A DNA stretch of 47,315 bases from a bacterium (GTDB lineage: Bacteria > UBP14 > UBA6098 > 4484-93): NCBI GenBank assembly GCA_021158465.1, contig JAGGUN010000027.1, forward strand, positions 64,369 to 111,683. The letters run 5' to 3'. A program made the translations under genes and the position numbers. Positions 32,862-33,839 of the stretch are shown here, in pieces (position 1 is the stretch's first letter; each line of letters begins with the position of its first letter). Under the pieces are notes generated by a model. That model was not told the DNA's origin. It worked only from the letters and a program-made list of their open reading frames with translations, and did no database searches.

Positions 32862-32890
32862 TTGACAATCCTGCCGGCAATATTTATAAT
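32862..32890 (+). promoter_or_regulatory. Near-perfect sigma-70 promoter of the structured RNA
   Basis: TTGACA (32862-32867) and TATAAT (32885-32890) with a 17-bp spacer: full consensus at both boxes. It is the strongest sigma-70-type promoter in the window. No open reading frame with a ribosome site follows, and the predicted start (near 32897) coincides with the first base pairs of a closing stem. Confidence 0.85.
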
Positions 32891-32895
32891 GTAGG

Positions 32896-33006
32896 TGGCT
32901 GAAGATAAGGGGGGCATTTCCCCGGGTCATCAGAGCCTTCGGGCAATTCGTTTTAATAGGTCCGCTGGTGAATAGACACCAGACCCCGCTACTTCAGCCA
33001 TTTTTT
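32896..33006 (+). ncRNA. Unidentified structured small RNA of about 110 nt
   Basis: The transcript from the consensus promoter is predicted to fold as one closed unit. A 9-bp closing stem (TGGCTGAAG at 32896-32904 with CTTCAGCCA at 32992-33000) brings both ends together and is directly followed by six T residues, so it doubles as terminator. Inside are a G-rich hairpin (GGGG-CATTT-CCCC, 32911-32923), a C(UUCG)G tetraloop hairpin (GCC-UUCG-GGC, 32935-32944) and a hairpin CTGGTG-6 nt-CACCAG (32965-32982) extended by GGT/ACC. GGGTC (32924-32928) can alternatively pair with GACCC (32982-32986), and the G run can pair with the late CCCC, so two conformers are possible. It does not look like 4.5S, 5S, 6S, tmRNA or RNase P RNA, and no same-strand gene follows it, so it is not a riboswitch leader. 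Function unknown. Confidence 0.8.
32992..33006 (+). terminator. Terminator of the structured RNA, formed by its closing stem
   Basis: CTTCAGCCA pairs with the first nine bases of the transcript and is followed by TTTTTT. The 3' arm overlaps the stop codon and last two sense codons of the convergent DUF3800 gene, so the two genes share this DNA. Confidence 0.7.
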
Positions 33007-33839
33007 ATTCTCCAACCAACTTTACGCTTTTCTGGGAACTTTTTTATTCCAAAACCCTGAATCTGACCACCCGGACCTTTATGGAGCTTGCCAACTATCT
33101 CTCGAAAAAACGGATACATCCTAAGATACCTCTCGGTCGGTTCCTCCCATTCACCGCCATAGTCTCTAAACTGCCGCATCACATTATAGGCACAGAAGTC
33201 CGCCACTTGCAAAAGATTGGATGTATCAGAACTCTTAAAGGAGGGCATTCCTTTTACCCTGTCTACAATCACCTTTTGCAAAGTGCTTCCATCTTTCTGC
33301 ATTTTTACATGCACTCTTTTAATCAATTTCATATAAGGATAGCGACCCCAAGGCTTTTTGCCACTTATCTTATCTACTATTACATCTCCTTCACCACCAA
33401 CCCTCTGTAGAAAATACTGATAACGCTCTATCAAAAGCTCATATCCCCAACTACTGGGACTATAAGCCTTTTCCCCATATTTCTCCCGCATCTCGCGCTT
33501 GTCAATAACCGAGGCTAAGAGAGTAATTGGTGAACTCTTTATTACCCTGTATATCTCTCCTGTCATCTCACGGAGAATGGTGTTTGTGATGTTAAATGGT
33601 ATAAGGTAATGTTTTTTTCTCTCTTTCGGAATTCGGAACCAATTAGATTTGAACTCGACCTGCTCAGTGCCAAGATATGCCCTCTTAATTCTTTTAAACT
33701 CCTGTTCGATACTTGACACATTCTTCTTCTCAACAACACAACCAAGATAAACAAAATAGAGGCTGGTGCGTGGAGCATATTCTCGCTCGCCACTCTCATC
33801 CACAAACATACGATATTCGTTCACATTCTTCTCGCTCAA
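32994..33839 (-). CDS. DUF3800 domain protein
   Basis: 281 aa. MFVDESGE (D14, E15) near the start and NLLQVADFCAYNVMR in the last third are the two hallmarks of DUF3800, an RNase H-like fold seen in accessory and defence or toxin contexts, with an unproven nuclease role. The middle contains a conserved-looking VIVDKISGKKP motif. The codon choice is more AT-rich than the neighbours (many aaa, att, tta), hinting at separate acquisition. It is the last gene of the pil unit: the start overlaps the DUF3108 stop. The first possible start is TTG (33839), weakly supported; GTG at 33824 or ATG at 33809 are alternatives, the last leaving the DESG motif almost at the N-terminus. Its 3' end runs into the terminator of the oppositely oriented structured RNA. 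Confidence 0.8.
   Translation of the reverse strand: MSEKNVNEYRMFVDESGEREYAPRTSLYFVYLGCVVEKKNVSSIEQEFKRIKRAYLGTEQVEFKSNWFRIPKERKKHYLIPFNITNTILREMTGEIYRVIKSSPITLLASVIDKREMREKYGEKAYSPSSWGYELLIERYQYFLQRVGGEGDVIVDKISGKKPWGRYPYMKLIKRVHVKMQKDGSTLQKVIVDRVKGMPSFKSSDTSNLLQVADFCAYNVMRQFRDYGGEWEEPTERYLRMYPFFREIVGKLHKGPGGQIQGFGIKKFPEKRKVGWRIKNG

What the first reader, a model, noticed from the sequence alone, without database searches (positions are those of the whole stretch)
32862..33006. Unrecognised, strongly expressed structured RNA with self-closing terminator
A full-consensus promoter (TTGACA-17-TATAAT) leads into about 110 nt with a perfect 9-bp closing stem that is also the terminator, three internal hairpins including a C(UUCG)G tetraloop, and competing GGGTC/GACCC pairing. 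It does not match the shape of SRP RNA, 5S, 6S, tmRNA or RNase P RNA, and no gene on the same strand follows it. It could be a new small RNA class of this lineage.
Basis: partly seen in the sequence, partly recalled or inferred. Interest (0 to 1): 0.72.

Follow-up and report, generated by a model that had tools for sequence, protein, structure and literature searches.

The report
Structured RNA partner of nuclease-like gene
The window holds a real-looking, strongly promoted small RNA of about 110 letters that runs head-on into the end of a gene for a nuclease-like protein (DUF3800), an arrangement found beside many such genes across bacteria, which makes it an unlisted member of a known but unexplained group of RNA and protein partners, most likely an RNA that binds and restrains its protein.

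Summary
In detail: full-consensus promoter, 9-bp closing stem, U6 terminator, stable fold (z = -3.5), no Rfam match even at E <= 10. I collected 91 DUF3800 genes from 386 genomes. A convergent promoter-stem-T-run unit at the 3' end is found in 21/91, against 0/74 valS genes and 2/160 other ORFs. The window's DUF3800 is sister (support 99/98) to an 11-gene clade in which all 11 carry such an RNA; ten of these align in two groups with compensatory changes. Five Rfam hits (DUF3800-V, -VII, -IX) in these loci lie in the same position and orientation. So this is a new family within a known kind, not a stand-alone new class. No homologue of this RNA itself was found, so its own stems lack covariation support. 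Best mechanism: the RNA binds and restrains a nuclease-like toxin or defence protein, as shown for the AbiF RNA. Binding and inhibition are inferred, not shown.

The parts
32862..32890 (+). sigma-70 type promoter, TTGACA-17-TATAAT, 12/12
32896..33006 (+). structured small RNA (inferred transcript, TSS about 32896-32898, end in the T-run)
   Evidence: sequence and fold; no Rfam hit
32896..32904 (+). 5' arm of the 9-bp closing stem, TGGCTGAAG
   Evidence: inner eight pairs P about 1, outermost pair 0.54
32911..32914 (+). GGGG, predicted to pair long-range with CCCC 32984-32987 (P about 0.6), competing with a local hairpin with CCCC 32920-32923
32965..32982 (+). internal hairpin CUGGUG-AAUAGA-CACCAG
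   Evidence: P about 0.97-0.99
32992..33006 (+). 3' arm of the closing stem CTTCAGCCA plus T6: intrinsic terminator
32994..33839 (-). DUF3800 gene (PF12686), convergent; stop codon lies in the 3' arm of the RNA's closing stem, 13-bp overlap with the RNA; predicted RNase H fold

Best explanation
It is the RNA half of a two-part DUF3800 module: a structured, constitutively transcribed sRNA encoded convergently at the 3' end of a DUF3800 gene. Shown by computation: the promoter, fold and terminator; the overlap with a DUF3800 gene; the recurrence of this arrangement at DUF3800 genes and not at control genes; the tracking of RNA sequence with protein clade; the position of known Rfam DUF3800 sRNAs in the same place and orientation. 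Inferred: the RNA folds with its closing stem sealing the molecule and binds the DUF3800 protein, which is predicted to have an RNase H fold. The most likely role of binding is to hold a nuclease-like toxin or defence protein inactive until RNA supply falls, for instance when a phage shuts down host transcription; direct neutralisation of this kind has been shown experimentally for AbiF and its RNA. Breakdown: DUF3800-partner sRNA 0.88; binds the protein, given that, about 0.8; inhibitory rather than activating, given binding, about 0.6. The confidence below is for partner RNA that binds the protein, with inhibition as the favoured but less certain form.
For: PF12686 E = 1e-16 for the convergent gene. 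Convergent promoter (>= 10/12) + helix + T-run at the 3' end in 21/91 DUF3800 genes, 0/74 valS, 2/160 other long ORFs (Fisher p about 1e-6 and 1e-8). In 28 of the 32 hits of the looser scan the T-run lies within 28 nt of the stop codon. Protein tree: window DUF3800 sister to 11 genes at 99/98, all with a convergent RNA (10 of the 11 called by the automatic scan, the other, L150, by homology to L144). RNAs of that clade show compensatory changes: 6 of 11 pairs and 11 of 23 pairs; in the second alignment G-U cells (about 25) far outnumber A-C (1), which fixes the strand. 18 of the 22 strongest RNA-RNA similarities join members of one protein clade, against 3 of 22 for upstream regions. Rfam DUF3800-V (L166, L232), -VII (L187, L188) and -IX (L193) all lie just 3' of, and convergent to, the gene. 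RNase H2 is the top structural match, Foldseek probability 1.0. Four sister-clade modules lie next to restriction-modification genes. Precedent: RCd22 RNA neutralises AbiF by direct binding (PMC12373285).
Against: No homologue of this particular RNA or close homologue of its protein was found (best protein identity 32%, in its class; RNA), so its own stems have no covariation support. It matches none of the models made from sister-clade RNAs and no Rfam DUF3800 family. The window's module lies among housekeeping genes, not in a defence island. No expression, binding or toxicity data exist here. The structural match is partial (TM 0.21-0.46 among RNase H2 and HII hits; mean pLDDT 75). PADLOC does not list this protein.
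Confidence: 0.6

Rival explanations
1. The RNA is an activating cofactor, scaffold or guide: DUF3800, an RNase H-fold nuclease, works only as a ribonucleoprotein with it, in the manner of TnpB/IscB with their RNAs.
For: RNase H-like fold (also stated for DUF3800 in PMC10910872); RNA and protein co-inherited; some DUF3800 proteins accompany Cas12a2.
Against: No variable guide-like segment can be recognised with one sequence. Sister RNAs are short hairpins plus terminator. A clade without RNA has a small protein partner instead, so RNA is not required by all DUF3800 proteins.
Confidence: 0.2
2. The convergent RNA is an antisense regulator of the DUF3800 mRNA: read-through of the DUF3800 transcript is complementary to the whole RNA, and the two form a duplex or the two transcriptions collide.
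For: Convergent overlap of 13 bp with the CDS. The DUF3800 strand has no U-tract after the inverted repeat, so its mRNA may run through the RNA gene.
Against: Stems with compensatory changes and many G-U pairs on the RNA strand in the sister clade argue for a selected RNA fold, not just complementarity. The overlap with coding sequence is minimal.
Confidence: 0.12
3. An independent regulatory RNA (6S-like or base-pairing sRNA) that only happens to abut DUF3800.
For: Strong stand-alone promoter and terminator; 6S not found by Rfam in the class.
Against: The arrangement is far more frequent at DUF3800 genes than at control genes; no homologue in the class, unlike a housekeeping RNA; single locus.
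Confidence: 0.06
4. No functional RNA: a chance promoter plus the DUF3800 gene's terminator.
For: No conservation of this exact sequence could be shown.
Against: 12/12 promoter, closing helix and T6 together; fold z = -3.5; shuffled flanks give 0-1 hits in 91.
Confidence: 0.02

Closest known systems
Rfam DUF3800-V (RF02964), DUF3800-VII (RF02967), DUF3800-IX (RF02968) sRNAs
   Same: sRNA just 3' of a DUF3800 gene and convergent to it (5 of 5 hits in fetched loci); similar size (67-96 model positions against about 105)
   Different: No covariance-model match to the window RNA
Rfam DUF3800-VI (RF02915)
   Same: RNA next to a DUF3800 gene
   Different: Lies upstream in the sense direction, classed as cis-regulatory (L174, L175); different architecture
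Unlisted RNAs of the sister DUF3800 clade (L144, L147, L150, L154, L161; L170, L189, L191, L207, L218; L210)
   Same: Nearest gene clade, same place and orientation, own promoter and terminator
   Different: Other sequence and fold: small hairpins plus separate terminator hairpin; models R1 and R2 do not match the window RNA
AbiF RNA / RCd22 (abiF motif RF03085), type III toxin-antitoxin-like
   Same: Structured RNA paired with one toxin or defence gene; RNA shown to neutralise the protein by direct binding (PMC12373285)
   Different: RCd22 lies upstream on the same strand and carries repeated motifs; the toxin belongs to another family, linked to the origin of Cas13

Membership tests
DUF3800-associated convergent sRNAs (the kind) | Adjacent DUF3800 (PF12686) gene | tested here: met
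   E = 1e-16
DUF3800-associated convergent sRNAs (the kind) | RNA immediately 3' of the gene, on the opposite strand, T-run at the stop codon | tested here: met
   T-run 33001-33006 over the last codons; compare
DUF3800-associated convergent sRNAs (the kind) | Own promoter and intrinsic terminator | tested here: met
   the ready-made terminator scan did not list it, because its loop limit is 8 nt; the rule does
DUF3800-associated convergent sRNAs (the kind) | Stems conserved by covariation among relatives | tested here: inconclusive
   no relatives of this RNA found; met for the sister clades
Any Rfam DUF3800 family | Match to the family's covariance model | tested here: not met
   none even at E <= 10
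Type III toxin-antitoxin RNA | Tandem RNA repeats upstream of, and co-transcribed with, the toxin gene | tested here: not met
   single unit, downstream, convergent
Type III toxin-antitoxin RNA | RNA neutralises the protein by binding | not testable with these tools
   needs experiment
6S RNA | Match to RF00013 | tested here: not met
Bacterial SRP RNA | Match to RF00169 | tested here: not met
   the genome's SRP RNA lies on contig C24

The most novel reading that the evidence does not exclude
DUF3800 proteins are a large, undescribed class of RNA-dependent RNase H-fold nucleases, and the convergent RNAs, this one included, are their dedicated cofactors or guides, so that the module is an RNA-directed defence nuclease unrelated to CRISPR and TnpB.
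Probability: 0.12. Interest if true: 0.9.

Novelty: new member of a known kind. Interest (0 to 1): 0.5.

Why it matters
DUF3800 RNAs are listed in Rfam, to my knowledge without an established function. Adding a member whose protein branches next to an all-RNA-bearing clade, several with restriction-modification neighbours, and showing that RNA type follows protein clade, turns 'an RNA near a gene of unknown function' into a directly testable RNA-protein module, with an experimentally studied analogue in AbiF.

Tried and rejected
Housekeeping RNA: Rfam scans of window and region, SRP and 6S searches, none fits. Homologue by BLAST in class and relatives: only chance matches, the ones inspected lying in coding-like sequence without the promoter and stem. 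Synteny upstream of valS in the class: nothing comparable found, although treated minus-strand loci in the wrong orientation and so covers only part of them; the only same-genus genome lacks this stretch of assembly (valS truncated at a contig end, DUF3108 absent). Mobile element with terminal inverted repeats: single copy in the genome. Relatives of the protein in viral, plasmid and phage collections: none (the alignment query was not usable). Models from sister-clade RNAs against the window RNA: about 4 bits or less within the RNA itself, not significant. Single-sequence model of the window RNA over 386 genomes: apart from itself only E > 0.1 hits, none beside DUF3800 within the loci fetched. 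The phylum of G101 holds only 4 genomes. The 2017 paper that named the DUF3800 motifs (doi 10.1093/nar/gkx699, from memory) is not held, so its statements on orientation could not be read; orientation was measured here instead.

Full report
A 12/12 sigma-70 promoter (32862-32890) leads into about 110 nt closed by a 9-bp stem and followed by T6. The predicted RNA is clearly more stable than its shuffles (z = -3.5). No Rfam family matches at gathering score or at E <= 10.

The decisive fact lies on the other strand. The gene that converges on the RNA (32994-33839, minus) encodes a DUF3800 protein (PF12686, E = 1e-16). Its stop codon sits in the 3' arm of the RNA's closing stem. Rfam contains several families called DUF3800-I and so on (two are named in PMC11701678), and PMC10910872 notes that DUF3800 had been found associated with putative ncRNAs and predicts an RNase H fold.

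To test whether the neighbourhood is meaningful, DUF3800 genes were collected from 386 genomes: 74 genomes carry one or more, and 91 genes with a readable 3' end were extracted. An automatic rule (promoter of at least 10/12, helix of at least 5 pairs, T-run, 40-200 nt) applied to the antisense strand at the 3' end fires in 21 of 91 DUF3800 genes, 0 of 74 valS genes and 2 of 160 other long ORFs from the same loci. On the other flanks of the same DUF3800 genes it fires 0 times (3' end, sense), 6 times (upstream, sense, where the gene's own promoter is expected) and 0 times (upstream, antisense). With the promoter threshold lowered to 8/12 there are 32 hits, and in 28 of them the T-run lies within 28 nt of the stop codon. 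The rule is strict, so it undercounts. The sample was not filtered by relatedness, but most genes come from different families of bacteria.

Known Rfam RNAs in these loci give an independent check of geometry. DUF3800-V (L166, L232), DUF3800-VII (L187, L188) and DUF3800-IX (L193) all lie just downstream of and convergent to their DUF3800 gene. DUF3800-VI is different: upstream, sense, classed as cis-regulatory (L174, L175). The window RNA has the V/VII/IX geometry but matches none of the models.

In a protein tree the window's DUF3800 is sister, with support 99/98, to 11 genes, and all 11 have a convergent RNA (10 by the automatic rule, L150 by homology to L144). Two groups of these RNAs could be aligned: five with a GAUCGGG-loop-CCCGGUC hairpin and five with an AAUCC...GGAGGUGGAUGG two-hairpin core. 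Both show compensatory changes; in the hairpin-plus-terminator alignment G-U pairs on the RNA strand are common and A-C almost absent. Each alignment has only five sequences, so this is support, not a formal covariation test. RNA similarity follows protein clade: 18 of the 22 strongest RNA-RNA matches are within one clade, against 3 of 22 for upstream regions (the clades were named by me from the tree, and one of the four exceptions is a pair of DUF3800-V RNAs). A separate clade of 17 lacks the RNA almost completely (1 of 17 by the loose rule) and, in the three members read, has a small protein gene right downstream; the one tested against PADLOC matches its phage-defence candidate PDC-M04B.

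The window RNA itself remains an orphan. BLAST, models of the sister RNAs and a structure model of the RNA itself found no relative, and the one same-genus genome lacks this stretch of assembly. The conclusion that it is a DUF3800 partner therefore rests on position, anatomy and the behaviour of its sister clade, not on covariation in this RNA.

Mechanism. The predicted structure of the window's DUF3800 (mean pLDDT 75, pTM 0.79) finds RNase H2 structures first, with Foldseek probability 1.0 but modest TM-scores. Four sister-clade modules lie beside restriction-modification genes: Mod and Res (L150), HsdS and HsdR (L161), an Eco57I-type methylase (L147), a Res-like helicase (L207). A nuclease-like protein, a sporadic distribution, a strongly promoted structured RNA whose type follows the protein clade, and the AbiF precedent, where the associated RNA neutralises the toxin by direct binding (PMC12373285), together favour an RNA that restrains the protein. 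An activating or guide RNA is the main rival, and antisense control a lesser one. None of these is shown.

Verdict: a probable real sRNA, a new sequence family of the known kind 'DUF3800-associated convergent sRNA'; not a stand-alone new RNA class. Interest is moderate, because the kind has no established function that I know of and the module can be tested directly.

Noticed in passing
L182, L164, L179 and the tree clade of 17 DUF3800 genes: This DUF3800 clade lacks the convergent RNA and in the three members read has a small protein gene right downstream; the L182 protein matches PADLOC's defence candidate PDC-M04B (E = 7.5e-42), so DUF3800 may be its partner there. A protein may take the RNA's place.
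   Followed up: partly
L166 about 2070-2362: One DUF3800 gene seems to have two convergent RNAs in a row: one like those of L173/L194/L205/L216 next to the gene, and an Rfam DUF3800-V RNA beyond it.
   Followed up: no
L174 1421-1471, L175 1424-1476: Rfam DUF3800-VI lies upstream in sense, unlike V, VII and IX, so the DUF3800 RNAs fall into two architectures.
   Followed up: partly
L150, L161, L147, L207: DUF3800-RNA modules lie within or beside restriction-modification genes.
   Followed up: partly
class of the window's genome (17 genomes): No Rfam 6S RNA match in any genome of the class, although SRP RNA is found in most; 6S may be absent or too divergent.
   Followed up: no
G136 (L145, L175, L176, L177, L188, L224): One 2.6-Mb genome carries six DUF3800 matches in different clades, with at least two different convergent RNAs (L145 closing-stem type, L188 DUF3800-VII).
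   Followed up: no
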